From: Antrihabitans stalagmiti
GTDB lineage: Bacteria; Actinomycetota; Actinomycetes; Mycobacteriales; Mycobacteriaceae
DNA: 64,000 nucleotides
Reading direction: 5' to 3'
Assembly: GCF_016482825.1 (NCBI RefSeq)
Contig: NZ_JAEMNV010000001.1
Coordinates: forward strand, 868,001 to 932,000
Both the position numbers and the translations under genes were made by a program. Every line of letters starts with the position of its first letter. Within the stretch, counting starts at the first letter, position 1. The notes beneath the pieces were generated by a model. That model was not told the origin of the DNA, made no database searches, and saw only the letters and a list, made by a program, of their open reading frames with translations. Below, piece by piece: positions 12,277 through 64,000 of this stretch.

Positions 12277-12288
12277 CGTGTTTCCTTT

Positions 12289-13044: not shown

Positions 13045-13074
13045 CCGCTCTCCTTCTTGTTTACGTACACGACA

Positions 13075-13158: not shown

Positions 13159-13199
13159 CGACGCAGACGTAAATCAAACGGCGCAAGGAGTGCACTGCC

Positions 13200-37075: not shown

Positions 37076-38473
37076 TCAGTTCGTTGCTGCGGCCACCTGG
37101 GCCGCCTCGACGGTGTCACTACTCCGCTCGGCGCCGAGCATGAGCAGCGTGAGGCCCGCAGCGAGGCTGCAGCCGGCCATAAAAAGCCAGGCCGTGTGGA
37201 AGGCGGCAAGGTCAGGACGAACATCGAGAATCACTGCGACAACAGCGACTCCGATCGCAACACCGACCTGCCTGCACATCGTCATCAGTGCGCTGCCCGT
37301 GGCAAAGCGCTCCGGCGGAAGGGACAGCGTTGCCGCCGACGCGACGCTCGTCAGGAGTAGACCGAGCCCGACGCCGCCGACGAGCAGCGCGGGCAGAAAT
37401 GTCGTCGTGTACGCGGGAGCGACTTCCGTCGCAAGCACCCACCAGACACCTGCCGCGGCGAACAGCACACTGCCTACCAGTCCAACCAGGCGAGCACCGT
37501 AGCGCTCAGCGAGGATGCCGCCGGGGACAGCTGCCACGGCGACCATCAGTGGTCCAGGCGCAATCTCCATGGCCGCACGCAACACAGAGTGGTGCCAGAT
37601 CCCGGTGAGGAACAAGGTCGAGGCAAGGATCAACGCAGCGAACGAGCCGAACAGGAAGAACGTCGCGAGATCGCCGACAGCGACGCTTCTGATGCGCAGG
37701 ATCGCGGGATCGATGACGGGCGCCGGATGCCGGAACGTGCGTCGCACGCTGAATACGACGCCGACGATGCCGAGCGCAAACAGTCCGACCACGCCGCCGC
37801 TGGTCCAACCCCAATCCGGACCCTGAACGATCGCCGCAACGATCGCCGCTGCCGTTGCGGCAAGGACAACTGCGCCGAGAACGTCGGGAGCGGTCGGTCG
37901 CTCCTCGCGCATTTCCGGCAGCGTCCGTATGCCGACGATCACGGCGGCGACGCCGATCGGCAGGTTGACGAGAAACACCCAGCGCCAGTCGGCCTGAACG
38001 AGCAAGCCTCCGATCGGCGGACCGAATGCGGCGCCCGCTCCACTCATCGCAGACCACAAACCTATTGCTGCACCGCGTTTCTCGGCTGGGAACAGAGCGA
38101 GCAGCAGGCCGAGCGAGCTCGGCGTCATCAAAGCTGCGCCAACGCCTTGCGCGACGCGGCCTGCCACGAGCACCTCGAGCATCGGAGCCGCAGCGCAGGC
38201 AGCGGAGGCCAGCGTGAACACGACGAGTCCCACCAGAAATGCGCGCTTGCGTCCCGACCTGTCTGCCCACCGCCCGGCGGGCATCAGCAGCGCGGCGAAC
38301 GTGATCGCGTAGGCGCTGAGGACCCAGGAGAGGTCGCCGAGGGTCGCGTCGGAGAACGAAAGCAACATGTCGGGGAACGCGATGTTGACGATCATCACGT
38401 CGAGTGACGATACGAATACTGCGACAAGTACGACGGCAATAGCGCCGCGACGTCGCGGCTCGACCTGATTCAT
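37076..38473 (-). CDS. MFS exporter, DHA2 (14-segment) family
   Basis: A 465-residue drug:H+ antiporter-2 type transporter. Its start (ATG 38473) overlaps the stop of the terminal PKS as ATGA; a start 4 codons earlier is possible but less coupled. Visible motifs include [13 protein letters not shown] in the first segment, [13 protein letters not shown] in loop 2-3, and the motif C-like region [11 protein letters not shown] in segment 5. About 14 membrane segments are predicted. Being translationally coupled to the last PKS, it most likely exports the finished product and may give self-resistance. Confidence 0.88.
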
Positions 38474-41400
38474 GACTCGATCCACCTTTTCGTCGTTGTT
38501 GCGGTGTCGATTGCGGCATCTCCGATGAGGGAGAAGTGGTCAGCGACGACATCGGCTTGCTCGTCGCTCTCCTGCCACCACGGCCAGTCGATCGGGGCGG
38601 CGCCCCCACCGATTCCTTCGGTTGCGCGGATCAGTAGCGTCGGCGCGCCGATCTGTGTGGATCGGCGGTCGCGCAGCAGGCGCATGTAGGTGCCCATTGC
38701 GAGCCAGGCGTCGTCGCCGATCTCGTCGTCTCGGGTGTCTCGACGGTCCCGGAGAATCTCGGCCATGACCATCGCGAAGATCCGATCGGTCTCCTGCCGA
38801 TCAGCGGGCATGGGCGTGTCGATCATCACGACCCCGGCTACAGCGCTGCCCTGCTTCTCGAGTTCGGCTGCGAGCGAGTGCGCGACCAGGCCACCGATCG
38901 AATAGCCGACGAGCACGATAGGACCGTCACCGACAACTCGCCTCATCGAGGACGCGAGCACATCCACGGCGACCGTCCAGGAGCGTGGCACCGCTTCCGT
39001 GCCACGAAAGCCGGGGAGCGAGCATGCGAAGACGTCGTGCGTTGTGTCGAAATGGTCCGCGAATCTCATGAACTGATGCGGACCGGATCCGACGACGAAC
39101 GAGGGAACACAGACGAGTTTCGTTGTCGCACTGCCGGATGCAAGCTTGACGACGAAGTTGTCGTCGGCCCCCTCCAGTTCGGCGGCCGCTGCGAACGAGC
39201 GGCGAAACTGTGACGCCTCCGCCAGCATCGGTAGCGCGTCCGCGATCGTTCCCGCGGCAAACGCGTGCCGAATCATCTCGCCGACCGTTCCGCTACCACT
39301 TCCGAATTCAGGGACGAGCTCGGCGTATCGGGCGGGGGTCGGTTCTTTTGCCACTTCGAATGTTTCGAGGATCAGCCGTGCGGTTGCGGTCGGTGTCGGG
39401 TGCTCGAAGATCAGGGTCGCGGGAAGTTTGTGACCCGTAGCCTGCGTCAACCGGTTACGCAACTCCACCGCAGCAAGCGAATCGAAACCAAGATCCTTGA
39501 ACGCCCGATCAGGATCCACACTGCCCGAACCCGAATGACCCAACACCGCCGCAACATGAGACCGCACAAGATCGACAACAACCGACTCCCGCTCAGCAGC
39601 AGGCATTCCGGCGAGCCGCTGCGCCAACGAACCCGAACTGGCCGCCACCTCTCGCACCGGTGCCCGCACCAATCCACGCAGCAGTGCCGGAAGCAGCCCG
39701 GCCTTGGCTTGGTGTCGCAGCGCAGCGAGATCGAGCTGAACCGGAGCAAGAAGCGCCCGATCCGACCGCAACGCCACATCGAACAAACCCAACGCCTGCT
39801 CCGCCGACATCGCACCCACCCCCAACCGACCCAACCGCGCCAACTCCTCCTCCCCCAACCCACCCGTCATCCCCGTGCCATCCGCCCACAACCCCCACGC
39901 CAACGACACACCAGGCAACCCCTGCGCCCGACGCAGCACCGCAACCGCATCCAACCCAGCATTCGCCGCCGCATAATTCGCCTGACCCGCACTACCCACC
40001 AACGCCGCCATCGACGAAAACAACACAAACGCCGACACATCCAACCCCGCCGTCAACTCGTGCAACACCAACGCCCCATCCACCTTCGGACGCAACACCC
40101 CCGCCAAACTCTCCTGCGACATCGACTCCACCACACCGTCATCGAGCACACCCGCCGCATGCACCACCGCCGTCAACGGCCACTGCAACGAATCCAACAA
40201 CGCCCCCACCGCACCCCGATCGGCCACATCACACACCTCCACCCGCACCTCGGCCCCCAACGCCTCGAGCCCCGCCAACACCTCGAGCCCCGCCGCATCC
40301 ACCCCAGCCCGACCCCGCCGCGACACCAACACCAAACGCTTCACCCCATACACACCCACCAAATGCCGAGCCAACACCAACCCCAACCCACCCGTACCAC
40401 CCGTAATCAACACCGACCCCTCCGGATCGATCGGCGCAGGCACCGTCAACACAACCTTGCCGACATTGCGACCCTCCCGCAAAAACCGAAACGCCTCCCC
40501 ACCAGCACGCACATCCCACGTCCGCACCGGAGCATGAGCCAACACACCCTCGGCGAACCACTCGACGACCTGGGCGAGTGTTTGCTGAATTCGGTCGGCG
40601 CCAGCTGCCTCGGATACATCGAACGCCCGATACCGCACACCAGGGTGTTCTCGCGCAACGACTTCCGGGTCTCGAACATCGGCCTTGCCGATCTCGAGGA
40701 ACCGGCCACCTGGCGACAACAGACCCAAGGTGGTGTCGATGTATTCGCCTGCCAGCGCATTCAACACGACGTCCACACCGGTTGCGAAGGTCTCACCGAA
40801 GCCGAGGTCTCGCGACGAGGCGATCCGATCTTCGGCAATCCCCAACTCCCGCAACGCGTCCCACTTCGACGGACTCGCCGTCGCGAACACCTCGGCACCA
40901 AGGTGCTGCGCGATCCGAACAGCCGCCATCCCCACCCCACCAGCCGCGGCATGCACCAGCACCCGCTCCCCCGGCTGCACACCCGCCAGATCGATCAGAC
41001 CGTAGTACGCAGTCAGATACACCACCGGCACCGCGGCTGCCTGCACGAACGACCAGTCGTCCGGCATAGTGGTGACCATCTGCCGATCGGCGACGGCAAC
41101 GGGACCGAAGGTATCCGACACCAGCCCGAACACGCGATCGCCTGGTGCGAGATCGGTTACCGCCGAACCGATCTCGAGCACCACCCCGGCTGCCTCGCTA
41201 CCGAGCGGCGCATCGCCCGGATACATCCCCAAGGCGATCAGAACGTCCCGGAAGTTCAGGCCTGCAGCCCGCACTCCTATCCGCACTTCGTCTGCTGCCA
41301 ACACTCGGTCGGCATCCGACGCCACGATGGCGAGATGTTCGAGCGAGCCTTTCTTCGTGATTCCCAACCGCCACAGGCCCTCCCGAGGACCGCTCGCACG

Positions 41401-44400
41401 CACGAGACGAGGCGCGAGCACACGTCCGGCGCGGATCGCAAGCTGCGGCTCGTCGGTACCGACCAGCGCACTCCAGTCGGGATCGGGACCGTCGTCGACG
41501 TCGACCAGTACGAACCTGCCAGGATGCTCCGACTGCGCGCTTCGCACGAGCCCCGAGACCCCGGCCGCAATCGGATCCTTCTCGGCGTTACGGGTCGCCA
41601 GCACCAACCGCGCGTCGGCGGGCGCCTGTGCCAGCCAGGTCTGCACAGACTCCAGAGCTTGCGCTGCAGTGTCCACGCGCGCCACCTCGACAGCACCGGC
41701 TCGCACACCGTCGGGTACCGCGACCCACTCCAGCTCGAACAACGAATCGTGTCCACCGCCGAGCTGCGCCGCCTCCACAGGACGTGTGTCCAGGCGAGCC
41801 ACCTCGAGAACGGGATCGCCGTGTTCGCTGACGATGTCGATCCGCAGTGCGGGTCCGTCGGACTGTCCGATAGCCCGGATCCGCACCCGGACTGTCGAGA
41901 CGTCCGACCGCCCAAGCCGAACACCCGACCACGAAAACGGCAGCACCGCAGCCACATCCGCACCCTGCTGCAGCAGGACACCGTGCAACGCCGCATCGAA
42001 CAGAGCGGGATGTATCACGAAGCCTTCGGCAAGTGCCTCTTCCGGCAGCACGACCTCTGCGTAGATGTCGTCGCCGCTGCGCCAGGCTGCTCGGACGCCC
42101 CGAAATGTTGGGCCGTAGTCGAACCCGAGGTCGGCCATCCCGGGGTATAGATCCCCGACCGCAGTCGACTTGGCACCCGGCGGTGGCCAGTGCACCGGAA
42201 ACGGTTCCGGCACAACCACGTCCGCAGTCAGCCAACCGCGCGCATGGCACGTCCCGCTGTGGTCGTCGTCCTGGCGCGAAAAGATCCCGATCTCGCGGCG
42301 GCCGTCCGTATCGGCGTGCCCGACCGTCACCTGGATTCTGCGCGTCGTGTCGGCATCGAGCACGAGAGGAGCTTCGATCACCAGTTCGTCGGGTACAGGG
42401 CACCCGACGGTCCGACCGGCCGCGAGTGCCAGCTCGACCAGCGCTGTGCCGGGTAGCAACACGATCCCGAACACCATGTGGTCGCGGGTCCATGGGTGCG
42501 TGTGCTGGGATATCGATCCGGTGAACAGCCACTCGTCGCTGTCGCCGATCTGCGCTACCGCGGCCAAGATCGGATGGTCCACCCGACCTAGACCGGCCGC
42601 CGAGATGTCCCCGACACCAGCGGTCGGCATGATCCAGAAATGCTGGCGCGTAAACGCATACGTGGGCAGGTCGACCTGCTGCGCGCCCGTACCGTCGTAG
42701 AACGTCGGCCACTGCACCGCTGCGCCCGCGACGTGCGCCTGCCCGAGGAACCCTGCAAACGTCGCGGGTTCGGAGTGGCGAGCACGCAGCGCCGCAGCGA
42801 CAAGGATGTTGTCGTTCTCGTCGAGGGTTTGCCGCGCCATCGCGGTCAAAATCGCGTCCGGGCCGAGTTCGAGGAACCGACGAACCCCCAGCTCGTGCAG
42901 GGTTGCGACGCCGTCTGCGAACCGCACCGCCTTGCGGACATGGTTCACCCAGTACATCGGGTCGGTCAGCTCCACAGACACGAGAGCGCCTGTCAGGTTC
43001 GACACGATCGGGATCCGCGGTTCTGCGAACGTCAGACTCTTTGCCACGCTCTCGAACTCGGTGAGCATCGGTTGCATCCGGGGCGAGTGGAAAGCGTGGC
43101 TGACCTTGAGCCGTGTGGTCTTTCGGCCCGACCACTGCGGCAGCCATTCGTCGACCGCATCGGTGTCGCCGGATACGACGACAGCGCGCGGCGCGTTCAC
43201 CGCTGCAATTGCCAGCCGACCGGCGAAGCCGTCGAGCGACGGCGCGATTTCGGACTCGTCGGCCTGGACCGCAACCATCGCGCCACCCGGCGGAAGTGCA
43301 CCCATCAAGCGTGCCCGCGCCGCCACGAGTGTGCATACGTCCGGCAACGTCAACACGCCGGACACATGCGCGGCGGCAAGCTCGCCGACAGAATGGCCGA
43401 TCAGGTAGTCCGGACGTATGCCGAGTGATTCGACCAACCGGAACAACGCGACCTCGACGGCGAACAACGCGGGCTGGGTGAACTCGGTCGCATCCAACAG
43501 CGTGGAATCGTCGGACAACAAGTCTCGCACCGAGCGACCGACCCGCCCGTCCAACTCCGCGCAGACCTCGTCAAGCGCGCGGTCGAATACCGGAAACGCC
43601 TGCGCCAGTTCGGCACCCATGCGCGCCCGCTGCGATCCCTGGCCGCTGAACATAAAGGCCGTCTTTCCATCGACAGCCCGCGTCGTTGAAACGTCGGCTG
43701 CCAGCGCATCGAGCCCGTGCAACAGTTCGTCGCGCGTCGATGCGACGACGACCGCACGACGCTCGAGCAGCGCTCGCGTCGTGGCTTGCGAGAATCCGAC
43801 GTCGAGTACCGACACATCGGGCCGCGCTAGCAGGTGAGCACGTAGCCGACCGGCTTGCGCACGCAGTGCGCTGTCGGTGCGGGCCGAGACGAGCACCGGT
43901 GCCGCGGGGAGCACCCGATCGACGCGAACCTCCACCGGTACATCGGCAGGCGCCTCTTCGAGGATGACATGCGCGTTGGTGCCGCTGATCCCGAACGACG
44001 AAACCCCGGCTCTACGCGGCCTCCCGTTGCGCGACCACTTCTGCGCCTCGGTGAGCAACGCGACGTGGCCGGACTCCCAATCCACATGCGGCGACGGTTC
44101 GTCCACATGCAGCGTCGCGGGCAACAATTCGTGCTGCAACGCAAGCACCATCTTCATCACCCCCGCAACACCCGCGGCTGCGGACGTATGGCCGATGTTC
44201 GACTTGATCGAGCCCAACCACAACGGGTTCGTCCGGTTCCGGCCATAGACCGCGAGCAACGCTCTCGCCTCGATCGGGTCGCCAAGCTTCGTACCCGTCC
44301 CGTGGCCCTCGACGGCGTCGACATCCTCGGGACCCACATCAGCGTTGGTCAGCGCAGCCCGGATCACCCGTTCCTGCGCGGATCCGCTCGGTGCCGTCAA

Positions 44401-45312
44401 TCCGTTGCTCGCACCGTCCTGATTGACTGCGCTGCCACTCAGCACAGCCAAGATTCGTCGACCGTTGCGCCGCGCTTCGGACAGCCGCTCCAACACGACC
44501 AGACCGACACCGTCGGCAAAGCCGGTGCCGTCAGCCGCCGCGGCATACGCCTTGCACCGACCGTCCTCCGCGAGACCACGCTGCCGACTGAACTCGACGA
44601 ACAACGTCGGTCCGGCAAGGATCGTCACTCCGCCGACCAACGCCAGCGAACAGTCACCTGCACGCAAGCCCTGTGCCGCCTGATGCATCGCGACCAACGA
44701 CGACGAACACGCCGTATCGACCGACACTGCTGGTCCGGCCAAACCGAGCGCATAGGAGACGCGGCCCGAAAGGACACTGGTCAGCAGGCCGGTGCGATAC
44801 CCCTCCAATTCGGGTGGCATCGGTTCGCCGTACTCCGATTTGAATCCTCCGCAGTAGACTCCGGTAGCGCTGCCGCGCAACGACACCGGATCGATGCCCG
44901 CATTTTCGAACGCCTCCCACGCCGCTTCGAGCAACAACCGCTGTTGCGGATCCATCGCCAGCGCCTCGCGCGGGCTGATCCCGAAGAACTCGGCGTCGAA
45001 CTCGCCTGGCCGGTCGAGGAAGCCGCCGCCGCGGGTGTAGAACTTTCCGATCCGATCCGGATCCGGGTCGTACAGATCATCGATATTCCAGCCACGGTCG
45101 GTCGGCACGCTGGTGATCGCATCGCGACCGGATGCCACGAGTTCCCACAACTCGTCCGGCGACGAGACGCCGCCCGGATACCTGCAGCTCATGCCGACGA
45201 TGGCGATCGGTTCGGTCGACTGCGCAACGAGCCGACGGTTCTGCTGCCGTAGTCGGTCGGTTTCCTTGATCGACTTCCGCAGTGCCTCTACCAGTTCCGT
45301 GTTCGAACTCAT
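38470..45312 (-). CDS. Type I PKS, final module: KS-AT-DH-ER-KR-ACP-TE
   Basis: A 2,280-residue single-module PKS. N-terminal docking coil at 1-33; KS at 34-455 with TACSSSL (Cys202), HGTGT and NIGH; AT near 545-835 with GHSVGE (Ser641) and HAFH (malonyl-specific); DH with [11 protein letters not shown] (His945) and [10 protein letters not shown] (Asp1106); ER at 1315-1610 with [15 protein letters not shown] near 1630 with LDD and YAAAN (B-type); ACP near 1937; TE near 2020-2280 with GYSIGG and a late ADHFSLI. All domains look active, so it adds a fully reduced unsubstituted C2 unit and releases the chain. Starts inside the upstream PKS stop (ATGA). Residues about 1585-1951 lie in a DNA segment identical to the neighbouring PKS gene. 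Confidence 0.94.
39458..40558. repeat. 1,101-bp perfect repeat, copy in the terminal PKS gene
   Basis: Identical at every base I compared to 45637-46737 (constant offset 6,179). It covers the ER end, the whole KR and most of the ACP. The coding strand from about 40,540 to 39,760 is very rich in G and T, with Leu mostly TTG, Gly GGG/GGT and Val GTG, while the flanks prefer CTC, GGC and GTC. This combination of repetition and skew fits a GRINS element. Confidence 0.9.
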
Positions 45313-48300
45313 GCAACATCCTCCTGAACCATCCGGATGAGAGCATCGGCGTCGAGATCGTCGATCGACGCGGCATCGTCGCCGGGCAGGTCGTCGGAGA
45401 GATCACCGGCCGCCAGCTCTCGCAGTGTGTCGAGCAGGCCCGCCCTGCGCAGCCGCTCGATCGGAATCGCAGCCAACAGGTCGCGGATCTCGTCGTCACC
45501 CGATGGCCGGTCCGCGTCGGGCGCGTCATCCGGCCTTACGATCGACAACACGTAACGTGCGGCCGCTGTCGGCGTGGGATGCTCGAAGATCAGCGTCGCG
45601 GGAAGTTTGTGACTCGTAGCCTGCGTCAAGCGGTTCCGCAACTCCACCGCAGCAAGCGAATCGAAACCAAGATCCTTGAACGCCCGATCAGGATCCACAC
45701 TGCCCGAACCCGAATGACCCAACACCGCCGCAACATGAGACCGCACAAGATCGACAACAACCGACTCCCGCTCAGCAGCAGGCATTCCGGCGAGCCGCTG
45801 CGCCAACGAACCCGAACTGGCCGCCACCTCTCGCACCGGTGCCCGCACCAATCCACGCAGCAGTGCCGGAAGCAGCCCGGCCTTGGCTTGGTGTCGCAGC
45901 GCAGCGAGATCGAGCTGAACCGGAGCAAGAAGCGCCCGATCCGACCGCAACGCCACATCGAACAAACCCAACGCCTGCTCCGCCGACATCGCACCCACCC
46001 CCAACCGACCCAACCGCGCCAACTCCTCCTCCCCCAACCCACCCGTCATCCCCGTGCCATCCGCCCACAACCCCCACGCCAACGACACACCAGGCAACCC
46101 CTGCGCCCGACGCAGCACCGCAACCGCATCCAACCCAGCATTCGCCGCCGCATAATTCGCCTGACCCGCACTACCCACCAACGCCGCCATCGACGAAAAC
46201 AACACAAACGCCGACACATCCAACCCCGCCGTCAACTCGTGCAACACCAACGCCCCATCCACCTTCGGACGCAACACCCCCGCCAAACTCTCCTGCGACA
46301 TCGACTCCACCACACCGTCATCGAGCACACCCGCCGCATGCACCACCGCCGTCAACGGCCACTGCAACGAATCCAACAACGCCCCCACCGCACCCCGATC
46401 GGCCACATCACACACCTCCACCCGCACCTCGGCCCCCAACGCCTCGAGCCCCGCCAACACCTCGAGCCCCGCCGCATCCACCCCAGCCCGACCCCGCCGC
46501 GACACCAACACCAAACGCTTCACCCCATACACACCCACCAAATGCCGAGCCAACACCAACCCCAACCCACCCGTACCACCCGTAATCAACACCGACCCCT
46601 CCGGATCGATCGGCGCAGGCACCGTCAACACAACCTTGCCGACATTGCGACCCTCCCGCAAAAACCGAAACGCCTCCCCACCAGCACGCACATCCCACGT
46701 CCGCACCGGAGCATGAGCCAACACACCCTCGGCGAACAGCCCGGTTATTGCGAGGAACATCTGCTGGATCCGGTCCGGTCCGGCATCGACGAGGTCGAAC
46801 GCGCGATAGCGCACGCCATGATGGCGATCCGCGACAACGTCCGGATCGCGGACATCGGCCTTGCCCATCTCGACGAATCGGCCGCCGGGAGCCATCAACC
46901 CCAAAGTGGCGTCGACGAATTCGCCGGCCAGTGCATTCAGCGCGACATCGATACCCGCAAAGGCAGTGCCGAAGCCGAGGTCACGCGACGACGCGATCCG
47001 ATCCTCGGCAATCCCCAACTCCCGCAACGTGTCCCACTTCGACGGGCTCGCGGTCGCGAAGACCTCGGCCCCAAGATGATGCGCAATCCGAACAGCCGCC
47101 ATCCCCACCCCACCAGCCGCGGCATGCACCAGCACCCGCTCGCCCGACCGCACATTCGCGAGGTCGACCAAGGCGTAGTAGGCGGTCAGATACACCACCG
47201 GCACCGCGGCCGCCTGCACGAACGACCATCCGGCGGGGATGGGCACCAGCATGCGGTGATCCGTCACCGCAATCGGTCCGAATCCATCGGTCATCAATCC
47301 CATGACTCGGTCACCCGGTGCCAGATCGGCTACCTCGGAACCGATTTCGAGCACGACCCCGGCGCCCTCGCTTCCGAGCGGCGCGTCGCCCGGATACATC
47401 CCCAACGCGATCAACACATCCCTGAAGTTCAGCCCGGCAGCTCGAACCCCGACCCGAATCTCACCCGCTGCGAGCGGCCGTTGCGCGTCCGATGCGACGA
47501 TCGCCAATCCGTCGAGCGAGCCCTTCGCCGTGATACCCAACCGCCACAGGTTATCTCGCGGCGACGGTGCCCGCACGAGCCGCGGCGCCGTGACGACGCC
47601 GTCGCGCACAGCGAGCTGGGGCTCACCGAGGTCGGCCAACGCGGCCCAGTCCGGCTCCGGACCCCCATCGACATCGACCAGAACGAAGCGACCAGGATGC
47701 TCCGACTGCGCGCTACGCACCAGACCCGACACCCCCGCCGCTACAGGGTCGTTCTCGGCACCGCGAGTGACTAGGACCAGCGGCGTCTCGGACTCCTTTG
47801 CCAGCCAGGATTGCACGACGTCCAATGCGCCTGCCGCTGTGTCGACGTGCGCTACCTCGACCTCGCTGGTGGCCGAACCATTCTGCACCGCAACCCATTC
47901 CAGCGCGTACAACGACTGCTGCCCACCCCCGAGTTGTCCCGGATCGACGGGCCGGGAGGCCAGTCGATCTACGGTGACGACAGGTTCGCCCTGCTCGGTA
48001 GCCACATCGACGCGCAGCAGGGTTGCTCCGGTACGGGTGATTCGCACTCGTGCCCGAGTAACCCCGCTGTGTCCGAGCTGCACACCGGACCAGGAGAACG
48101 GCAGCTCGACTGCCGATCCCGAGGTCTTGCCGATGAGCGCCGGATGCAGTGCTGCGTCGAAGAGCGCCGGGTGGACTGCGAAGCCTGCACCGCTGATGCC
48201 GTCGGGGAGTGCGACCTCGGCGTAGGTGACATCGCCAAGCCGCCACGCCGCGAGCAGCCCGCGGAAGGTCGGGCCGTAGTCGTAGCCGACGTTCGCCAAA

Positions 48301-51300
48301 TCCTCGTACCAGCCGTCGACAGCTATGGGCTCGGCTCCAGCCGGCGGCCACTGTGACGGAAAGCGCTCCTGCACAATCACATCGGTGGTCAACCAGGCAC
48401 GAGCGTGGCAGATGGCGTTCTGCTCACTGTCGGTACGGGAGAAGATTGTCACCTCGCGGCGGCCGTCGTCGACGACTCGCCCGACCGTCACCTGGATCTG
48501 TCTGGCGGTGTCGTCGAGCACAAGTGGTGCCTCGATCACCAACTCGTCCAGCGTGGGGCAGCCAACTTCGTGTCCGGCAACGGACGCCAGTTCCACGAAG
48601 GTGACACCAGGCACGATGACGGTGCCGAGCACTACGTGATCGCGGGTCCATGGCTGGGTGTCTTGCGACAACCGCCCGGTGAGGATCCACTCGTCGCGGT
48701 CACCGACCTGTAGCGCTGCGGACAGCAGGGGATGGTCGATTCGGCGGAGCCCTGCGGCGGACACGTCATTGCCACCGACACCGGGTGTCAACCAGAAGCG
48801 CTGCGGTGTAAAGGTATACGTCGGTAGCGCGACGCGCGTAGCGCCGGTTCCGACGAAGAACACCGGCCACTGGACCGCGACGCCCGCCACGTGCGCTTCG
48901 GCCGCCGAGATCGTGAACCGGTCCAACCCGCCGTCGTCGCGACGCAGAGATCCGATAACCGCAACGTTCGGCCCCACGGACTCTTCGACTGCCATCGTCA
49001 GCACCGGGTGCGGCGACATTTCGATGAAGCACGTCGCGCCGTCGGCGGCCAACGCCCGCACGGCGGGTTCGAATCCGACTGTGCCGCGCAGGTTTCGGTA
49101 CCAGTAGCCGGCGTCCATCGTGGTGGTGTCGATGACGCTGTCGGTCACGGTCGAATAGAGCCTGATCGTCGAGCGCTGCGGCTCGAGTGGGGCGAGCAAC
49201 TCGAGCAACTCGCTCTCGATCGCCTCGACCTGCGCAGAATGCGACGCGTAGTCGACCGCAATCCGGCGAGCCCTGATCTCGTCGCGTTCGCAGGTGGCGA
49301 TGAGGGCGTCCAATGCGTCCGGTTCGCCTGATATCACCACCGACGCAGGACCGTTGACTGCTGCGATCGACACTCGGTTTCGATAGGGCGCAATCAGTTC
49401 GGTGACGTGGTCGGCCGACAATGCGATCGATACCATTGCGCCCCGGCCAGCCAACCGTTCCCGGACCAATCGGCTGCGCACGGTCACGATCCGGGCGGCA
49501 TCGCGCAACGACAGCGCCCCGGCGACGTATGCGGCAGCGATCTCGCCTTGCGAATGCCCAACCACCGCAGCTGGTTCCACCCCGGAGGCGCGCCACAGCG
49601 CGGCAAGGGAGACCATCACGGCAAACAGGGCAGGCTGCACGATGTCGACACGTTCGAGCGTCGGTGCACCGTCCTCGTCACGGAGCACATCCTCTAGTCG
49701 CCAATCTACGAACTCCGCGAAAGCCTCACCGCACGCGGCGATCCGCTCGGCGAACACAGGCGAGGAATTCAAGAGCCCGACAGCCATGCCGACCCATTGC
49801 GCGCCCTGCCCAGGAAACACGAATACCGCGTCGCCTCCGCCGGAGTGACCCTGGAACACGCTGGCAGCCGGCTCGTTAGCGGCGAGGGCGCTCAACCCGG
49901 CCAGCAACTCGTCTCGGTCGGTTGCCACGACCGCGGCGCGGTGCTCGAGCTGAGCGCGTGTAGTTGCCGAGGAGAAGCCGACGTCGAGCAACGACACATC
50001 GGGCCGCTCACGAAGGTGGGCGAGCAGCGCGCCCGCTTGCGCCCGCAGCGACTTCTCACCGCGCGCGGACACGAGCACGGGAACCACAGGGATCGCTCGT
50101 TCGACCTGCATGGTCTCTGTCTCCGATGCAGGCGCTTCCTCGAGGATGACGTGCGCGTTGGTCCCGCTGACGCCGAACGACGACACACCTGCGCGACGCG
50201 GGTTCCCGTTCCTCGACCATTTTCTGGACTCGGTGAGCAGCTCGACCTGTCCTGAATCCCAATTCACATGTGGTGAAGGCGAATCGACGTGCAGGGTCGA
50301 CGGAAGAATTTCGTGCCGGAGCGCCTGCACCATCTTGATCACACCTGCGACGCCTGCCGCGGTCGAGGTGTGGCCGATGTTCGACTTGATCGATCCGAGC
50401 CGCAGCGGGCCGTTGGTCCGTTCACGTCCGTAGGTGGCCAGCAACGCCTGCGCCTCGATCGGATCACCGAGCTTCGTTCCGGTGCCGTGGCCCTCGACAG
50501 CATCGACCTCGTCCCCGCGCACCCCGGCGTTCGCCAACGCAGCCTTGATGACTCGCTCTTGCGACGGCCCGTTCGGCGCCGTCAGACCGTTGCTCGCACC
50601 GTCCTGATTCACCGCGCTGCCGCGAACGACCGCCAGCACTCGGTGGCCGAGCCGCTGCGCCTCCGAAAGCCGCTCCAACACGACAAGTCCGACACCATCA
50701 GCAAAGCCCGTTCCGTCTGCGGCAGCCGCGTACGACTTGCACCGACCGTCGGGCGAGAGCGCGCGCTGCCTACTGAACTCGACGAAGAGGAACGGGCCCG
50801 ACAGCACGGTGACGCCGCCGACGAGCGCCATGGACGACTCCCCCGCTCGCAGCGACCCGATTGCGAGATGCAATGCCACCAACGACGAGGAGCAGGCGGT
50901 ATCGATCGACACCGACGGTCCGGTGAGGCCGAGCGTGTAGGAGACTCGGCCCGACACCACGCTCGACGTCGACCCGGTCAGCCGAAAGCCCTCCAGCTGT
51001 GACTGACCGCCGGCGGGTCCGGCTGCATAGTCCGATGCGCCGACGCCGCAGAAGACTCCGGTATCGCTACCCCGCAGCGAGGTCGGGTCGATGCCGGCGT
51101 CCTCGAGCGCCTTCCATGCCGCCTCCAGCAGCAGCCGCTGCTGTGGGTCCATGGCGAGCGCCTCACGGGGACTGATCCCGAAGAAATCGGCATCGAAATC
51201 GGCTGCCCCGTCGATGAATCCGCCCACGCGCGTGTACGACGTGCCTGGCTGATCCGGATCGGGGTGGTACAGCTGCTCGAGATCCCAGCCGCGATCGGTA

Positions 51301-51557
51301 GGCAGGCCCGACATCGCATCGCGGCCCGAGGCGACCAATTCCCACAGTTCGGCCGGCGACGTCACCCCGCCGGGATACCGGCAGCTCATCCCCACGATTG
51401 CGATGGGTTCGTTTGCGCGTTCTTCCAGTTCCCGCAGTTGCGACCGGGTTTCGTTGAGATCGACCGCAACCTTCTTCAGGTACCGAACGAGTTTGTCCTG
51501 CTGGGGATCCGCGCTGCCGGTGTCCATTCCAACCCCTGTCATGCCAACCCCTGTCAT
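45309..51557 (-). CDS. Type I PKS, penultimate module: KS-AT-DH-ER-KR-ACP
   Basis: A 2,082-residue single-module PKS. N-terminal docking coil ([20 protein letters not shown]), KS with TACSSSL and NIGH, AT near 667 with GHSQGE and YASH near 772 (methylmalonyl-specific), DH near 972 with [13 protein letters not shown] near 1379 ([12 protein letters not shown]), KR near 1652 with LDD and YAAAN, ACP near 1959, then a C-terminal docking region ending [13 protein letters not shown]. It should add a fully reduced methyl-branched unit. Start and stop both overlap neighbouring PKS genes as ATGA. Three ATGs in a 15-base tandem repeat open the gene. Residues about 1607-1973 lie in DNA identical to the next PKS gene. 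Confidence 0.94.
45637..46737. repeat. 1,101-bp perfect repeat, copy in the penultimate PKS gene
   Basis: Partner of 39458-40558. The identity ends sharply: the base before it (45636) and the base after it (46738) differ between copies, and flanking ER sequence is similar but clearly diverged. A recent gene-conversion or duplication event is the simplest explanation. Confidence 0.9.
51528..51557 (-). repeat. 15-bp tandem duplication at a PKS start codon
   Basis: On the coding strand ATGACAGGGGTTGGC is followed by ATGACAGGGGTTGGA and then ATGGAC. This gives three in-frame start codons, each of the last two preceded by AGGGG. The protein would begin [12 protein letters not shown] if the first is used. 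Confidence 0.85.
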
Positions 51558-54500
51558 GCCGTGCCGATGTCGTCGATGCCGAATTCGGCGTCGATCAGCG
51601 CGAAGACCTCGTCAGCTGTCGTCGCCGCCTCGATCTGTTCGCTTGCCCGTCCGCCCGCGGTGACGGCCGCCAGCATCGTGCGCAGGCGCGCGGCAACGCG
51701 CACCTGTTCGGTAGGTGTTGTCGCCGTGAGCATTTCCTCGAGCTTCTGCAGTTCCCGGTCGATCGGGACTTGCGGCTCGTCACCCGAACTCCCGCCGAAT
51801 TCGGCGAGCAACTGCGTCGCGAGCGCCGCAGGTGTCGGGTGGTCGAAGACGAGCGTCGCAGGCAGGCGCAGACCGGTGAACTGTGTCAACCGATTTCGCA
51901 GGCCGACGGCGCCGAGCGAGTCGAAGCCGAGGTCCTGGAAGGGTCGATCGGGGGCGACTGCAGCCGGGGACTTGTGGCCGAGCACCGCGGCGACCTGCGC
52001 TTGCACCAACTCGAGGACGATTCGTTCCCGATCGACGTCCTGAGCGCTGGTGAGACGTTGCACGAACGACTCGTGAGCAGCCTCCACACCGCGCGCCGGC
52101 GTACGCACCAGACCACGCAGCAAAGCAGGCAGTGTGCCCTCACGGGCCTGCACGAGCAGCGCAGCGGGATTCAGCTGGACCGGCGCAAGTACGGATGCAG
52201 CTGCGCCGAGGGCGTGGTCGAAGAGTTCGAGCCCGAATTCTACCGAAAGCGCTTCTACCCCCAGCCGTTCCAACCGAACGAGGTCGGTGCTACCGAGCTC
52301 GCCCGTCATCCCGGTGGCATCGGCCCACAGCCCCCACGCCAGCGACGTTCCGACCAACCCCATGGCGCGACGCTGCTGCGCCAACGCATCCAGCGCAGCG
52401 TTCGCGGCGGCGTAGTTGCCCTGCCCCGGACTGCCGATCAGCGCTGCGACCGACGAGAACAGCACGAAAGCTGCGAGGTCCATATCGGCGGTCAGTTCGT
52501 GCAGGTGCCACGCCGCATCCACCTTCGGTCGCAGCACGCGCGCCAGCTGTTCGGGGGTCAGAGTTTCGATCAAGCCGTCGTCGAGCACACCTGCAGCGTG
52601 GACGACGGCGATCAACGGCTGCTCCAGCGAATCGAGAAGTGTTGCAAGCTGATCCCGATCGGAAGCGTCGCACGCTTCGACCCGTACGGTTGCTCCTGCC
52701 GCCTCCAGATCAGCAACTACGGCAGCGACGCCCGGCGTAGCGCTGCCACGCCGACTCACAAGCACCAGCTGCCGCGCGCCGTGCGTGGCAACGAGGTGCT
52801 TTGCGACGACGGCGCCCAAACCACCTGTGCCGCCGGTGATCAGGACGGTTCCGTCGGGGTCGAACACTGGCGTTGTCTGCGGCGTCGCCACAGTTGCCCG
52901 CGCGAGCCGCGGCGCAAGTAGTCCGGTGTTGCGTACGACCAACTGCGGCTCATCGACACCGGCAAGCGCTGCCCAGTCCGGGGTCTCCTCGCCGCCGAGA
53001 TCGACGAGCAGGAAGCGGTCCGGGTGCTCGGACTGTGCGCTGTGCACCAGACCCCACGCGGGCGCCTGGGACACATCCGGCGAATCGCCCTCGATGGCAA
53101 CCGCATTGCGAGTGACGACGATCAACCGTGACTGGGTCGTGCGGTCGCTCGCGAGCCAGCTCTGCACCAGTTCCAACGCTCGTGCGGCGACCGCCTGCGC
53201 CGCGACGTGTGTGTCACCCGGTGGTGACTCGACGGCTGCAACAACGACATCGGGCACTGCAGCTCCTGCGGCGAGTTGCTCGTCCAGCGCTGCCAGATCG
53301 GTGCACCGTTGTCCGCTGCCTGCGACGGCGCCGAGTAGGACGACGTGCCCCGCCTGGCCCAACGGAACGCTGACAGCCGTCCAGTCGCGCTGGTACAGGG
53401 AACGCTGGGCGGCGAGCCGCGTGGACTGCAGCTGCGTCCGATCGACCGGGCGAACATCCATCCGTCGCACACCGCCGACCGCCAGACCGGTCTCGTCGGC
53501 GAAGTCCAGCCGCAGCGCGTGCTCCCCCGCCGTTGCAACGCGGACCCGGAGCCTGGTGAGCCCGGTTCGCTCCAGATGCACACCGGACCAGGAGAACGGT
53601 AGACCGCCGCCTGCAGTGGGTCCTCGGTAGAGCTTGCCGAGACCACCGTGCAGGGTGGCGTCGAACAGCGCGGGATGCAGGCTGAATCCTGTTGCAGCTC
53701 CAGCGCTTTCCGGCAGTTCCAGCTCTGTGTACACCTCGTCGCCGAGCGCCCAGGCGGCCTGGACCCCGCGGAACGCAGGACCGTACGCGAAGTCGCCGTC
53801 GGTGAGGTGGGCATAATCGCCGAGCCGGGCATACACGGTCTCGACGGCCACCGGCTCGGACCCGACGGGCGGCCAGTGCGTGGGGAACTGCGCCGACTCG
53901 GGTGGCACACCGAGCCAACCGCGGCCGTGGCAGACCGCTGACTGCGGCTCGTCTGCGCTGTCCTGTCGGGAGAAGATCGCTACCGGGCGGCGTCCGTCGT
54001 CCGCCGCTGCGCCGATACTCACCTGGAGCTGACGGACGGTGGTCTCCTCCAAGATCAGCGGCGCCTCGAGCACCAACTCGTCCAACGCGGGGCAGTCGGC
54101 AATGCGGCCTGCCACCAGCGCCAGCTCGACGAGCGTCACACCCGGTACGAGTACGAGCCCGAACACCATGTGGTCGCGGGTCCACGGTTGTGCGTCGATG
54201 GACAGCCGACCCGTGACAAGCCACTCGTCGCGATCCCCGATCTGCGTCGCCGCAGCCAGGATCGGATGGTCGACGCGGACGAGACCGGCCTCGGCGGCTG
54301 TGTTCGTCCCGACGCTGGGAGCGAGCCAGAAGCGTTGGCGTTGAAACGCATACGTCGGCAGATCGACTCTGCGCGCGTTGCTGTTCGCGTAGATCGGGGT
54401 CCAGTCGACTGTGACGCCGACACAGTGCACCTCGGCGAGCGAGAGCAGAAATCGTTCGAGTCCGCCGTCGTCACGGTGCAGCGATCCGACCACCACGATG

Positions 54501-57500
54501 TCGGTCTGCCCGACCGTAGCCTCCACCGCGGTGCTCAGCACAGGATGAGGCGAAACCTCGACGAAGCAGCTGGTCCCCTGGTCGGCAAGTGCCCTGATGG
54601 CGGGCTCGAAACCGACCTGACCCCGCAGGTTTCGATACCAGTAGTCCGCATCGAGGGTCGCTGTGTCGACGAAGCCTCCAACTGCCGTGGAGTAGAACGG
54701 AATCCGGCCCGATACGGGAGCGATCGGTGCGATCGCCTCCAGAAGCTCGGCCTCGATCGTCTCGACCTGCGCCGAGTGGGAGGCGTAGTCGACCGCGACC
54801 CGGCGGAACCTGACGCTGTCGCGTTCGCAGACCGCGGCGAGCTCGTCGAGAGCGCCCTGCTCACCGGAAATCACGACTGCCGCAGGCCCGTTGACGGCGG
54901 CGACCGACAGTCGGCCGGCATAGGGTGCGAGCAATTCTTCGACCTGCTGCACCGGCAGGGCGATCGACGCCATGCCACCTCTGCCGGCCAATCGCTCACC
55001 GATGAGGCGTGAGCGCAGCGTGACGATTCTGGCGGCATCGTCGAGTGACAACCCGCCCGCAACGTAGGCAGCGGCGATCTCACCCTGCGAATGCCCGACC
55101 ACTGCAGTCGGTTCCACGCCATGCGCACGCCACAGCCGGGCGAGTCCTGCCATCACCGCGAACAGTGCGGGCTGGACGACGTCGACTCGATCCAACAGCT
55201 CGGCGTCGCCGCGAAGCACCTCGGTAAGCCGCCATTCGACGAACTGCCCGAGCGCCGTCTCGCACGCGGCAATCTCGGCGGCGAACTCCGGCGCGGACTC
55301 GAGCAGCTCGGCAGCCATTCCAGCCCACTGCGCACCCTGGCCGGGAAAAACGAAAACGGCTCCCTTGCCGAGGGTTCGGCCGACGACGACGTTGTCGGCC
55401 GGTTCGCCGGCAGCGATCGCGGCGAGCCCCGACAGCAGCCCCCCACGATCGGCAGCCACAACGGCGGCCCGACGTTCCAACTGCGCACGGGTGGTCGCCG
55501 TCGAATAGGCGAGATCGGGAAGGGTCACGTCGGGTCGACCGACAACGGAGGTGTGCAGCTGTTCTGCCTGCGCTCGCAGGGCTGCATCCGTGCGCGCCGA
55601 CAGCAGCACCGGCACCACCGACGGACCGGACGTCGCTACATGCTCGCGCTGCGGCGAATCCGGCGCTTCCTCCAAGATCAGATGCGCGTTGGTGCCGCTG
55701 ACACCGAACGACGACACCCCGGCACGTCGCGGGCGACCGTTGCGCGACCACGCCCGCGCCTCGGTGAGCAGTTCGACCCCACCCTGATCCCAATCGATGT
55801 GTGGTGAGGGTGAATCCACATGCAGTGTCGCGGGCAGTGTCTCGTGCCGCAGCGCCTGCACCATCTTGATCACGCCGGCGACACCGGCGGCGGCCGACGA
55901 ATGACCGATGTTCGATTTGATCGAACCCAGCCAGAGCGGGCCGTTCGTGCGATCACGTCCGTAAGTGGCAAGGAGCGCCTGGGTCTCGATTGGGTCGCCC
56001 AGTGTGGTGCCGGTGCCATGGCCTTCCACTGCGTCGATGTCTGCCGGACCCAGACCCGCATCGGCAAGCGCCTGGCGGATCACCCGCTCCTGCGAGGGTC
56101 CGTTGGGTGCGGTCAGTCCGTTACTCGCGCCGTCCTGGTTCACCGCGCTGCCGCGGATCACCGCCAGCACCTCATGACCGTTCCGCTGCGCGTCCGAAAG
56201 TCGCTCCAGCACAACGAGCCCCGCCCCGTCGGAGAATCCCGTACCGTCCGCAGCCGCCGCGTAGGACTTGCATCGGCCGTCCGGGGACAGTGCTCGCTGT
56301 CTGCTGAACTCCGTCAGCAGGTACGGGCCCGCCATCAGCGTCACCCCGCCGACCAGCGCCATTGAGCATTCGCCAGAGCGCAGCGCACGAGAAGCCAGGT
56401 GCATTGCGACAAGCGACGACGAGCAGGCCGTGTCGATCGACATGGCCGGACCTTCGAGGCCGAGTGTGTAGGAGATCCGCCCGGACGCCACACTCGTCGT
56501 GGTGCCGGTGAGCCGGTAGCCCTCCAGTTCCGACGAGTTGGAGCCGCCGTAGTCGGTGGTGACGACGCCTGTGAAGACGCCGGTATCACTGCCGCGCAGC
56601 GAGTTCGGGTCCACACCTGCGTCTTCCAGTGCTTCCCACGCAAGCTCGAGCAGTAGCCGCTGCTGCGGATCCATGGCCAATGCTTCGCGCGGGCTGATCC
56701 CGAAGAACTCCGCATCGAAGGCCCCCGCATCTGCGAGGAAGCCGCCGCCGCGAGTGGACACGGTGCCGGGCTGATCGGGATCGGGATCGTAGAGCCGTTC
56801 GAGGTCCCAGCCGCGATCGGTGGGCAGTCCAGTGACGGCGTCACTCCCTGCTGCGACGAGGTCCCACAGCAGCTTCGGTGAACCGGCGCCGCCCGGGTAA
56901 CGGCAGCTCATACCGACGATCGCGAGTGCTTCGTCCGCGGCTGCGGGCTCGCGGACCACCGGTGCAACTGGCACCGAATGCGTCTCCGCACCAGCAACTT
57001 CGGTGAGTAGCAGCCGTGCGACCGCGGCGGGCGACGGATGGTCGAAGACAAGGGTTGCGGGCAATCGCACGCCGGTGGCCCGGGTGAGCCGGTTGCGGAG
57101 CTCGACCGCGCCGAGCGAGTCGAACCCGAGGTCTTTGAACGCCCGCTCGGGGTCGACGGCGCCCGCAGCGACGTGGCCGAGCACGGAGGCGACATGAGAC
57201 TGCACGAGTTCGGCGACCATGCGCGCGCGGTCCGCATCTCCGAGGCCGGAAAGCTGTTGTGCCAGTGAGCCGCCGGCGGCACTGCGGCGGCGCGTTCCAC
57301 CGGCGGGCACGAGTCCGCGCAGCAACGCAGGCAGGTTTCCGGCACGGGCCTGATTGCGCAGTGCGCCCAGATCGAGCTGAACCGGCGCGAGCATCGATGA
57401 TGCCGAATCCGAGTCCACCGAGACTACGGCCTGGTCGAACAGTGCAAGGGCCGCTTCGGTAGGGAGCGCACCGACACCCATGCGGGCAAGACGGGCGTGG

Positions 57501-62113: not shown

Positions 62114-64000
62114 AGCGATCCGAGCTCCTTGTCGATCAATTCGTACATCTCGTTGTCCGACACGGAATCGAGGTCGTCGTCGGACGAGTCGTCAGCTGCG
62201 CCGAGAACGGTCCGTAGCCGGTTGCTCAGCGACCGCAGACGCGGCGCGATCTCGGCGAATTGCGCCTCGTCGGCCGCAACGGTCGCCAGCAGTGTTTCGA
62301 GGCGGCCCAATTCGTCCTGGAAGGGCGAGCGGTCCGGTTCTGCGCCGACGCCGACCTCACCGAGAACGAGCCGCGCGACGGCAATCGGGGTCGGAAAGTC
62401 GAAGACGAGTGTGGCGGGCAGTCGTACACCCGTTGCCTGGGTGAGCCGGTTGCGCAACTCGACCGCAGCGAGTGAATCGAACCCGATGTCCTTGAACGCC
62501 CGGTCCGGCTGCACGGCTGCGGAGCTGGCGTGGCCGAGGACGGCTGTGACGTTGGCCAGCACCAACTCGAGCACGACGTGTTCGCGGTCAGCCTCGGCGA
62601 CCCCGGCGAGGCGCTCGGACAGCGTCGCGTTGGCAGGCTCGGCGCGTCGTGCCGACGTGCGGACGAGTCCGCGGAGCAGCGCAGGCAACAGGCCGGCGCG
62701 CGATTGCGCCCGCAGCGCAACCGGATCCAGCTGGACCGGCGCCAACATCGACACCTCAGCGTTCAGCGCACGATCGAACAGGTCCAGCCCGAGCTCGGCA
62801 GGCAGCGCCCCGATGCCGGTACGTTGCATTCGCTCGAGGTCCGCGACGCCGAGCTCACCGGTCATGCCCGTCGCATCGGCCCACAGTCCCCAGGCGAGGG
62901 AGACCGCGGGCAGCCCCGTGGCGTGTCTGCGCGCAGCGAGTGCGTCGAGCGCAGCGTTGGCGGCCGCATAGTTCGCTTGACCCGCGTTGCCGAGAACTGC
63001 TGCGGCCGAGGAGAACAGCACGAACGCCGAGAGGTCGGAACGCTCTGTGAGTTCGTGCAAGTTCCACGCTGCATCGAGTTTCGGCCGCAGTACTGCATCG
63101 ATCTTGTCGGGTGTGAGTGATTCGATGAGTCCGTCGTCGAGTACGCCCGCGGTGTGAACCACCGCGGTCAACGGTATGTCCAGCGAATCCAGCAGCGCCG
63201 CAGCCTGATCGCGGTCGGCGACATCGCATGCCACGATTCGTGGCCGGGCCCCGAGCGCTTCGAGTTCGATACGCAGGTTGTCCGCACCGGGTGCGAGCGG
63301 TCCGCGCCGCGAAACGAGCAACAGATGCCGGATACCGTGCGATTCGACCAGGTGCTTTGCGACCCGCGCTCCGAGTCCGCCGGTGCCACCGGTGACGAGG
63401 ACCGTCTTGTCCGGGTCGAGTGGTGCTGGAACGGTCAACACGACCTTGCCGATGTTGCGGCCCTCGCGCAGGTACCTGAACGCGTCCGGTCCCCGACGGA
63501 CATCCCAGGTGCGTATCGGAGCCGGGGCCAGTACCTCCTGTTCGAACATCGCTGCGATCCGGGTGAGCATCTGCTGGATTCGCTCGAGACCGGCCTCCGC
63601 GAGATCGAACGAGCGGTAGCGAATGCCGGGGTGATCGTCGGCAACGACCCGCGGGTCGCGGATGTCGGTCTTGCCCATCTCTATGAACCGACCGCCACGG
63701 GGTAGGAGATCCAGTGTTGCGTCGACGAATTCGCCTGCCAACGAATCGAGCACCACGTCGACGCCCGCGCCTGCGGTGGCCGAAAGGAACGTGTCCCGGA
63801 AGTCGAGATCCCGTGAAGAGGCTATCCGCTCGTCGCTTATCCCTAACGCGCGCAACGCATCCCATTTCGATGGGCTCGCCGTTGCGAAGACTTCCGCGCC
63901 CGCATGCTGCGCCAACTGCACCGCTGCCATGCCGACTCCACCGGCTGCGGCGTGCACGAGCAGCGTCTGCCCTGCCCGCAGGTCGGCGAGATCGAACAGG
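62110..64000 (-). CDS. Type I PKS, 3' part: ER (partial)-KR-ACP and docking end; 5' end outside window
   Basis: About 629 codons of a larger PKS run off the right edge; the frame is open to base 64000. The visible part opens inside an ER ([19 protein letters not shown], the NADPH-binding loop), continues with a KR near codon 200 ([28 protein letters not shown]-type) and an ACP near codon 500-575 ([11 protein letters not shown]), and ends in an acidic docking helix ([15 protein letters not shown]). The presence of an ER implies a reducing module, probably with a DH to the right. Its stop overlaps the next PKS start as ATGA, placing it just upstream in the assembly line. Confidence 0.92.

What the first reader, a model, noticed from the sequence alone, without database searches (positions are those of the whole stretch)
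45940..46720. Intense codon and base skew inside the PKS repeat: a probable GRINS element
Within both copies of the repeat, the coding strand switches to TTG, GGG/GGT, GTG and CGG codons and is nearly depleted of NNC codons, then returns to the CTC/GTC/GGC use of the neighbours. Long open antisense frames appear here as a by-product. Repetition plus strong GC and TA skew within PKS genes matches what has been described as GRINS (genetic repeats of intense nucleotide skews), linked to PKS diversification. Other modules in the window do not show it.
Basis: partly seen in the sequence, partly recalled or inferred. Interest (0 to 1): 0.78.

Follow-up and report, generated by a model that had tools for sequence, protein, structure and literature searches.

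The report
Recoded repeat in polyketide synthase genes
Two neighbouring genes of a bacterial polyketide assembly line carry the same 1,101-base stretch, rewritten to favour G and T on the coding strand; it is a clear example of a known kind of repeat (GRINS), and it offers clues to the open question of how such repeats arise.

Summary
The unit is larger than reported: 39458-40558 and 45637-46737 are identical over 1,101 bp, while adjoining homologous sequence is 58-76% identical. The block covers the end of ER, all of KR and half of ACP in two adjacent PKS modules. Coding-strand GC and TA skews are +0.45 and +0.49; the same protein with a neighbour gene's codons gives 0.12 and 0.20. At the lowest of three thresholds, the limits of the G/T-rich segment match those of the repeat within 12 bp. 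The GRINS criteria that I could read are met. The nearest KR proteins, the window's other modules included, are not or weakly skewed, so the block was probably recoded in place. The skew follows gene orientation, reaches the amino acids and cuts predicted single-strand folding to about half or less; the substitution spectrum gives no clear deaminase signature. I favour conversion-driven recoding towards a strand good for RecA pairing; that step is inferred. New member of a known kind.

The parts
45637..46737 (-). GRINS copy in gene B: end of ER domain, KR domain and first half of ACP; identical to the other copy over 1,101 bp
   Evidence: exact match at offset 6179; keto-rich maximal segment 45636-46742 at the lowest threshold; GC/TA skew 0.45/0.49 over 45639-46736
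45944..46728 (-). most skewed core (end of ER and KR domain) of the gene B copy
   Evidence: maximal-segment scan at the middle threshold, keto fraction 0.77; codon counts for 45939-46736
39458..40558 (-). GRINS copy in gene A: same block
   Evidence: maximal segment 39457-40570 at the lowest threshold
39765..40549 (-). most skewed core of the gene A copy
   Evidence: middle threshold
45309..51557 (-). gene B, PKS module KS-AT-DH-ER-KR-ACP, 2,082 aa
   Evidence: ORF, Pfam domains
38470..45312 (-). gene A, PKS module KS-AT-DH-ER-KR-ACP-TE, 2,280 aa
   Evidence: ORF, Pfam domains
46978..47247 (-). weaker duplicated, skewed tract in the ER domain of gene B (270 bp, below the 500-bp GRINS length)
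   Evidence: identity 0.88, |GC| 0.25, |TA| 0.32
40798..41067 (-). weaker duplicated, skewed tract in the ER domain of gene A
   Evidence: identity 0.90, |GC| 0.32, |TA| 0.30
62455..63546 (-). unskewed paralogue of the block, control
   Evidence: GC/TA skew -0.01/0.03, 62.8% aa identity
51899..52876 (-). unskewed paralogue of the block, control
   Evidence: 0.04/0.12, 62.3% aa identity
57098..58081 (-). unskewed paralogue of the block, control
   Evidence: -0.01/0.14, 60.2% aa identity
23959..24894 (-). unskewed paralogue of the block, control
   Evidence: 0.00/-0.02, 45.2% aa identity

Best explanation
The block is a GRINS: an ER-end/KR/ACP coding segment that was recoded in place to G and T on the coding strand and then (or at the same time) homogenised between two adjacent PKS modules, most likely by gene conversion. 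Shown: the skew, the identical repeat, limits that agree at one threshold, an open reading frame with KR and ACP domains, protein relatives with little or no skew, and the same coupling of repeat and skew in a second PKS cluster of the genome and in other genera. Inferred, likely: gene conversion as the homogenising step. Inferred, about 0.3: the skew itself comes from biased conversion. Copies whose coding strand is rich in G and T make single strands that fold little and that RecA holds well, so they pair and donate more often; each exchange moves the tract further towards G/T, while GC content and protein function hold. Coding strands already lean to G at codon position 1, which would set the usual sign.
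For: Identity and homogenisation: 1,101 bp at 100% against 58-76% in the two adjoining aligned 100-bp bins on each side; limits of skew and of identity agree within 12 bp in both copies at the lowest of three thresholds. Published criteria met. In-place recoding: the nearest KR proteins (62-65% aa) have skews of at most 0.14/0.19; the KR sits in a group of 28 with 27 below my skew threshold (SH-aLRT 94, quick tree), and the label 'skewed' needs 8 changes, gains or losses, on a 130-KR tree, 6 forced by starred branches. Convergence: at identical residues third bases agree 55.2% on average (range 41-64) with 15 skewed KRs (mean aa identity 49.8%) but 42.5% (24-54) with 116 others (mean 52.2%). 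Coupling: in 100 kb of contig C12, 97 of 98 exact repeat pairs of 40 bp or more have both copies in skew blocks that make up 12.15% of the DNA; in 45 loci (22,434 windows, some loci overlap) the share of windows with both skews above 0.2 rises from 5% at under 60% identity to 65-68% at 95% and over. Nucleotide-level process: V+G+L+W+F+C make 45.0% of residues against 37.7% (highest 39.8%) in 27 sisters; P+T+H+Q+N+K 10.9% against 15.1% (lowest 12.7%); Leu shifts to TTG at the first base. Pairing: predicted ssDNA folding -18.0 (coding) and -11.2 (template) kcal/mol per 150 nt against -30 to -34 in four paralogues at similar GC; TGG/GTG/GGT 169 per kb against 45-77; RecA dissociates most slowly from TGG repeats (PMC3763553, abstract and passages).
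Against: The pairing step is not tested. TGG-type triplets are no more frequent than base composition alone predicts (173.8, sd 11.5); no shared motif stands out between two unrelated GRINS beyond codon shuffles at k=6 and 7 (k=8: 219 against 192.7, sd 14.6); folding adds nothing to identity once skew and GC are held (t=1.0). The same RecA paper reports that RecA does not recognise Chi as a nucleation site and argues that secondary structure cannot by itself explain the sequence preference. Unskewed near-identical repeats exist (72 of 500 windows at 95% and over); 533 of 914 strongly skewed windows have no partner above 85% in the same, cut, locus. In the window three short regions above 80% identity lack one of the two skews (60118-60357, 44878-45027, 43348-43557). 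Of the six residues summed, only Val and Gly are clearly raised; Ser is raised as well. In L124 a repeat has A/C-rich (negative) stretches on the coding strand, and the survey holds 20 strongly negative windows against 914 positive, so the sign is not fixed. Limits agree at one of three thresholds only. The 100% identity may be overstated: 1,101 bp exceeds short reads, and a 3.4-kb stray contig (C25) shares stretches with the other cluster.
Confidence: 0.85

Rival explanations
1. Strand-biased mutation: transcription exposes the coding strand (R-loop), deamination turns C to T and A to G, and the skew is a mutational scar; repeats follow from breaks at R-loops.
For: The sign follows the gene: 49 of 49 skew blocks in four family genomes with convergent PKS genes are G/T-rich on their gene's coding strand (the KRs of these genomes are close relatives, so this is largely one orthologous cluster). 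Among 13 skewed KR pairs C/T differences (188) exceed C/G (135), with a transition bias of about 3.7 against 2.6 in 12 unskewed pairs. G-rich coding strands favour R-loops (general knowledge).
Against: From unskewed to skewed sister, fourfold C goes mainly to G: 40 C-to-G against 15 C-to-T for L036 to L043, 30 against 14-15 for L041, a ratio like the C/G to C/T ratio of 228:96 among unskewed pairs. One other lineage gives 12:17 and 16:15 (L047, L053). GC content is hardly lower (0.65; the window's paralogues 0.66-0.70).
Confidence: 0.25
2. Selection on translation or mRNA: NNG/NNT codons or weaker mRNA folding are favoured in this domain.
For: Third positions and Leu codons change strongly; coding-strand RNA folds somewhat less (-32.8 per 100 nt against -35.3 to -40.1).
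Against: Four other KRs in the same cluster show nothing of it and the nearest relatives little; amino acids shift too; the RNA effect is small for the sense strand and large for the antisense (-13.8), which has no known product; skew tracks repeats.
Confidence: 0.08
3. Horizontal import of a ready-made skewed cassette from another organism, then duplication.
For: Skewed KRs occur in several genera of the family and beyond.
Against: Outside the two copies no DNA match of 300 bp or more exceeds 72% in the own genome or in 201 family genomes with two candidates scored each; of 64 plasmid records with a match, 63 lie at 60-80% and one at 80-90%, not listed and not looked at; the window's own other modules lie in the same tree group, except the one at 45%; skewed KRs elsewhere share only 44-52% of residues.
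Confidence: 0.05
4. Assembly artefact: the repeat is a collapsed or copied stretch and the two genes differ in truth.
For: Draft genome in 44 contigs; repeat longer than short reads; stray contig C25.
Against: The skew itself does not depend on assembly; the other cluster's copies are distinct and show the same pattern; homologous sequence just outside differs by a few bases (97% over 39377-39676).
Confidence: 0.07

Closest known systems
[quoted passage not shown] 2021
   Same: About 1 kb, in an assembly-line PKS with AT domains in the modules, near-identical to another region of the same PKS, intense GC and TA skew (criteria read in PMC9899208 and PMC10394414).
   Different: Covers the end of ER, KR and half of ACP, 100% identical; skews (0.45/0.49) well above the 0.15 and 0.25 thresholds. 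The azalomycin pair lies in a KS-AT-DH-KR stretch. How unusual this block is among published GRINS was not tested.
Near-identical repeated PKS domains of the mycolactone locus (PMC2569948, passages)
   Same: PKS domains homogenised within one locus, ascribed there to recombination-mediated domain replacement or gene conversion.
   Different: There domains of one function are nearly all alike; here one block in two of the modules. Skew was not compared.
TG-rich sequences preferred by RecA, TGG repeats (PMC3763553, passages)
   Same: Coding strand rich in the same triplets, 169 per kb.
   Different: An in vitro property of RecA; no link to GRINS was found in the library (0 papers hold GRINS, RecA and polyketide).

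Membership tests
GRINS | At least 500 bp with >80% DNA identity to another region of the same PKS | tested here: met
   1,230-bp regions at mean identity 0.99; 1,101 bp exact
[quoted passage not shown]
   0.42-0.43 and 0.45-0.46 over the regions
GRINS | Lies in coding DNA of an assembly-line PKS | tested here: met
   KS, AT, DH, ER, KR, ACP domains by Pfam in both genes, TE in gene A
GRINS | About 1 kb long | tested here: met
   1,101 bp
GRINS | Recoding with biased base composition relative to homologues | tested here: met
GRINS | Gene conversion history | tested here: inconclusive
   Sharp identical tract between older homologous flanks; no reads, strains or orthologous cluster to show the event; of 4 genus genomes searched, the own one included, 2 have any match, the other being a 53% aa unskewed KR
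GRINS | Any further criterion of the original paper | not tested
   paper not held
Transposable element | Terminal inverted repeats at the block's edges, or a gene of its own | tested here: not met
   Three weak inverted pairs in 45400-46980; one (45563-45581 with 46691-46709, 79%) lies near the edges but not at them; no Pfam hit in three antisense ORFs

The most novel reading that the evidence does not exclude
GRINS are a base-composition drive: a tract with G/T on the coding strand, hence A/C on the other, folds little on itself but pairs perfectly with its partner, so it wins exchanges between PKS modules and spreads its composition step by step, at unchanged GC and strongly enough to change amino acids. 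Strand sign is set by coding bias, not by replication; where local coding leans the other way an A/C-rich tract can form, as perhaps in L124.
Probability: 0.25. Interest if true: 0.82.

Novelty: new member of a known kind. Interest (0 to 1): 0.5.

Why it matters
Passages that I read present GRINS as repeats that may speed polyketide diversification through gene conversion; as I recall, the original paper leaves their origin open. This block is a clean case: recoding and repetition cover nearly the same unit. With convergent-gene controls and sister KRs of little skew it separates explanations: replication strand, codon choice and import fare badly, and deaminase-type mutation alone has mixed support, which leaves fixation bias tied to exchange as the leading, testable idea. 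If right, it would also guide module swapping in PKS engineering.

Tried and rejected
Import of a cassette: rejected on the KR tree and third-base test. Replication-strand skew: rejected, because sign flips with gene orientation within a few kb in four genomes, largely one orthologous cluster. Deaminase signature: not clear; no C-to-T excess in the L036 to L041/L043 pairs, an even ratio in L047/L053, and more transitions among skewed pairs than among unskewed ones. Chi-like or other shared motif: GCTGGTGG occurs once in the KR block and not in the C12 copy tested; shared 6- and 7-mers at shuffle level, 8-mers slightly above. Low folding as a factor apart from skew: no support. Antisense gene: no Pfam match in three ORFs. 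Tandem repeats: one short array, 46425-46473. Differences among five C12 copies: G/T and C/G dominate, which composition may explain (not computed), so I draw nothing from it. Dating by orthologues: no orthologous match in the genus.

Dropped before counts: 5 of 50 loci under 9 kb were left out of the identity-skew survey. Its top two bins hold 521 windows, 21 more than the 500, which skipped windows without G/C or A/T (probably masked N runs; not checked). One search kept windows at 85% identity and over and a sample of the rest. KR hits shorter than 250 residues and duplicates were dropped; two more rows were dropped for the tree (130 of 132). Loci were found by peptide patterns from the query, so they are not a random sample; thresholds for 'skewed' (0.18 in the KR tests) are mine.

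Full report
Observation. In 150-bp windows the + strand GC skew reaches -0.43 or beyond in two places only, 39751-40550 and 45901-46700, with TA skew -0.40 to -0.66 in the same windows. The PKS genes lie on the minus strand, so the coding strand is rich in G and T. With 300-bp windows the smaller of the two skews averages 0.44 in the blocks, is at most 0.27 elsewhere in the window, and at most 0.20 in nine 20-kb control stretches of the same genome. Drawing codons for the block's protein from the usage of gene C (51554-62113) gives GC skew 0.116 (sd 0.021, highest 0.185) and TA skew 0.203 (sd 0.029, highest 0.294) in 2,000 draws; observed 0.45 and 0.49. The effect is therefore neither chance nor due to the protein.

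Anatomy. Genes A (38470-45312) and B (45309-51557) each encode one module KS-AT-DH-ER-KR-ACP; A ends in a thioesterase. The block 39458-40558 equals 45637-46737 over 1,101 bp. By the Pfam limits it runs from the end of ER through KR into the first half of ACP. Identity in aligned 100-bp bins is 63% and 76% in the two bins upstream (coding direction) and 76% and 58% in the two downstream; further upstream it ranges from 43 to 92%. A dip at 39698-39757 (keto fraction 0.50) falls between KR and ACP. Two 270-bp tracts in the ER domains (40798-41067, 46978-47247) show the same coupling more weakly; three other short regions above 80% identity lack one of the skews.

Recoding. Core third positions are G 71, T 23, C 6, A 0%; fourfold sites G 75, T 19, C 6, A 0%; Leu TTG 35 of 39; C/T-ending twofold codons use T in 28 of 32; Gln, Lys and Glu use G in 23 of 23. 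G among G+C and T among T+A rise while GC stays 0.65. The protein changes too: against 27 sister KRs of low skew on 322 shared columns, Val, Gly and Ser are the highest of 28 and Thr the lowest of 28, while Trp, Phe and Cys are not raised. The KR and ACP domains are recognised by Pfam at full length; that residues for catalysis are present is my reading of the translations from recalled motifs.

Relatives. The nearest KR proteins have little or no skew: Streptomyces chumphonensis, Saccharothrix sp. NRRL B-16314 and Kitasatospora sp. A2-31 (62-65% aa; highest skews 0.14/0.19), and the window's own other modules (60-63%; a fourth at 45%). On a 130-KR tree the block sits with 27 KRs below my threshold (SH-aLRT 94), and the 16 skewed KRs need 8 changes of the label, 6 forced by starred branches; the count cannot tell gains from losses (quick tree, threshold of 0.18 for both skews chosen by me). 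Skewed KRs elsewhere share only 44-52% of residues, yet agree more at third bases: convergence rather than descent. In Streptantibioticus silvisoli two skewed KRs (L043, 0.37/0.35; L041, 0.28/0.32) have a relative of low skew in the same species (L036, 0.03/0.08; 76-77% aa), a separate case.

Same genome, other cluster. Contig C12 around 245-305 kb holds a second PKS cluster with nine skew blocks. Five copies aligned over the long blocks are mosaic: 0.75-1.00 identical in most 150-bp bins of the skewed part, with abrupt drops to 0.58 between two groups; by my reading of the translations they cover KS and AT parts (no Pfam run). Of 98 exact repeat pairs of 40 bp or more in 100 kb, 97 have both copies in skew blocks and one has neither. 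A third PKS-like stretch, C1 480-500 kb, shows no such skew (highest 0.16).

Which process? Sign: in four family genomes with convergent PKS genes 2-4 kb apart, 49 of 49 blocks are positive on their own coding strand, so replication direction is not the cause (gene orientation also from KR matches). These four are not independent: their KRs group at 100% support, and in two of them some blocks also overlap long antisense ORFs. In two more genomes (L123, L124), 13 of 16 blocks agree, one lies outside long ORFs, and two in L124 are A/C-rich, one of them overlapping no ORF of 700 aa or more; the repeat there carries the linker after KR, the ACP and the C-terminal tail in an A/C-rich stretch. Spectrum: fourfold changes from L036 to L043 run C-to-G 40, C-to-T 15, G-to-C 5, T-to-C 0, with a C/G to C/T ratio like that among 12 unskewed pairs (228:96). 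There the spectrum looks ordinary and the direction does not, which suggests biased fixation rather than a new mutation source. Against this, L047/L053 pairs give 12:17 and 16:15, and 13 skewed pairs show more transitions than unskewed ones (C/T 188, C/G 135; bias about 3.7 against 2.6). The counts rest on few lineages. Dose: the share of skewed windows climbs with repeat identity from 5% to 68%; windows overlap and several loci share contigs, so no p-value is given.

Physical consequence. With DNA parameters the block folds at -18.0 and -11.2 kcal/mol per 150 nt (coding, template) against -30.2 to -34.0 and -29.5 to -33.8 in four paralogues; two C12 copies give -22.4/-16.1 and -22.2/-15.3. 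A strand poor in C and A and a partner poor in G and T can hardly self-pair, yet they pair with each other fully. RecA is reported to dissociate most slowly from TGG repeats, with CCA the least stable at low RecA (PMC3763553, abstract and passages), and a paper title in two reference lists ties recombinase preference to ssDNA secondary structure (title only, paper not held); PMC3763553 itself doubts that folding is the whole reason. TGG-type triplets reach 169 per kb against 45-77, though composition alone predicts 174. I take this as a plausible reason why such tracts exchange well. It is not a test: folding explains nothing beyond skew and GC.

Judgement. GRINS membership is firm on the criteria that I could read. 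Homogenisation by conversion is likely, with the caveat of a draft assembly. The mechanism of recoding is open; I put biased conversion at about 0.3, strand-biased mutation at 0.25 (raised from 0.20 on rechecking), and leave part unassigned. The finding is a striking member of a known kind. What is useful beyond that is the set of contrasts (sisters of low skew, convergent genes, nearly coincident limits, amino-acid spill-over), which make the open question testable. I found no paper joining GRINS and RecA in the library, and only three that spell out the GRINS name; the library lacks most subscription papers.

Noticed in passing
window 40798-41067 and 46978-47247: A second, weaker duplicated and skewed tract in the ER domains of genes A and B (88-90% identity, skews 0.25-0.32), below the GRINS length limit; perhaps an eroded or nascent tract.
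   Followed up: partly
own genome, contig C12 about 245000-305000 (L104-L106): A second PKS cluster with nine skew blocks, five copies of a long one being mosaic; 97 of 98 exact repeat pairs lie within the blocks.
   Followed up: partly
L108 (own genome, contig C25, 3,361 bp): Stray PKS-like fragment that shares exact stretches with the C12 cluster; repeats may have broken the assembly, so module counts there may be wrong.
   Followed up: no
L124:3983-7658 and about 10300-13957 (G084): Two near-identical copies of about 3.7 kb, some 6.3 kb apart, skews up to 0.67/0.72; in the first copy DH, ER and KR-ACP lie in three different frames, ORFs break in the second as well, and there are indels between copies; sequencing error in G-rich runs or real decay.
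   Followed up: partly
L124:6901-7800 and 13201-14100: Repeated A/C-rich stretch (skews to -0.35/-0.30 on the coding strand) over the linker after KR, the ACP and the C-terminal tail, directly after a G/T-rich stretch: a repeat whose skew changes sign.
   Followed up: partly
L118, L120, L121, L122: Convergent PKS genes whose skew sign flips with gene orientation over a few kb, a natural control for replication strand; largely one orthologous cluster.
   Followed up: yes
L041, L043, L036 (Streptantibioticus silvisoli): Within one species, two skewed KRs and a relative of low skew (76-77% aa), a good set for polarising the recoding.
   Followed up: partly
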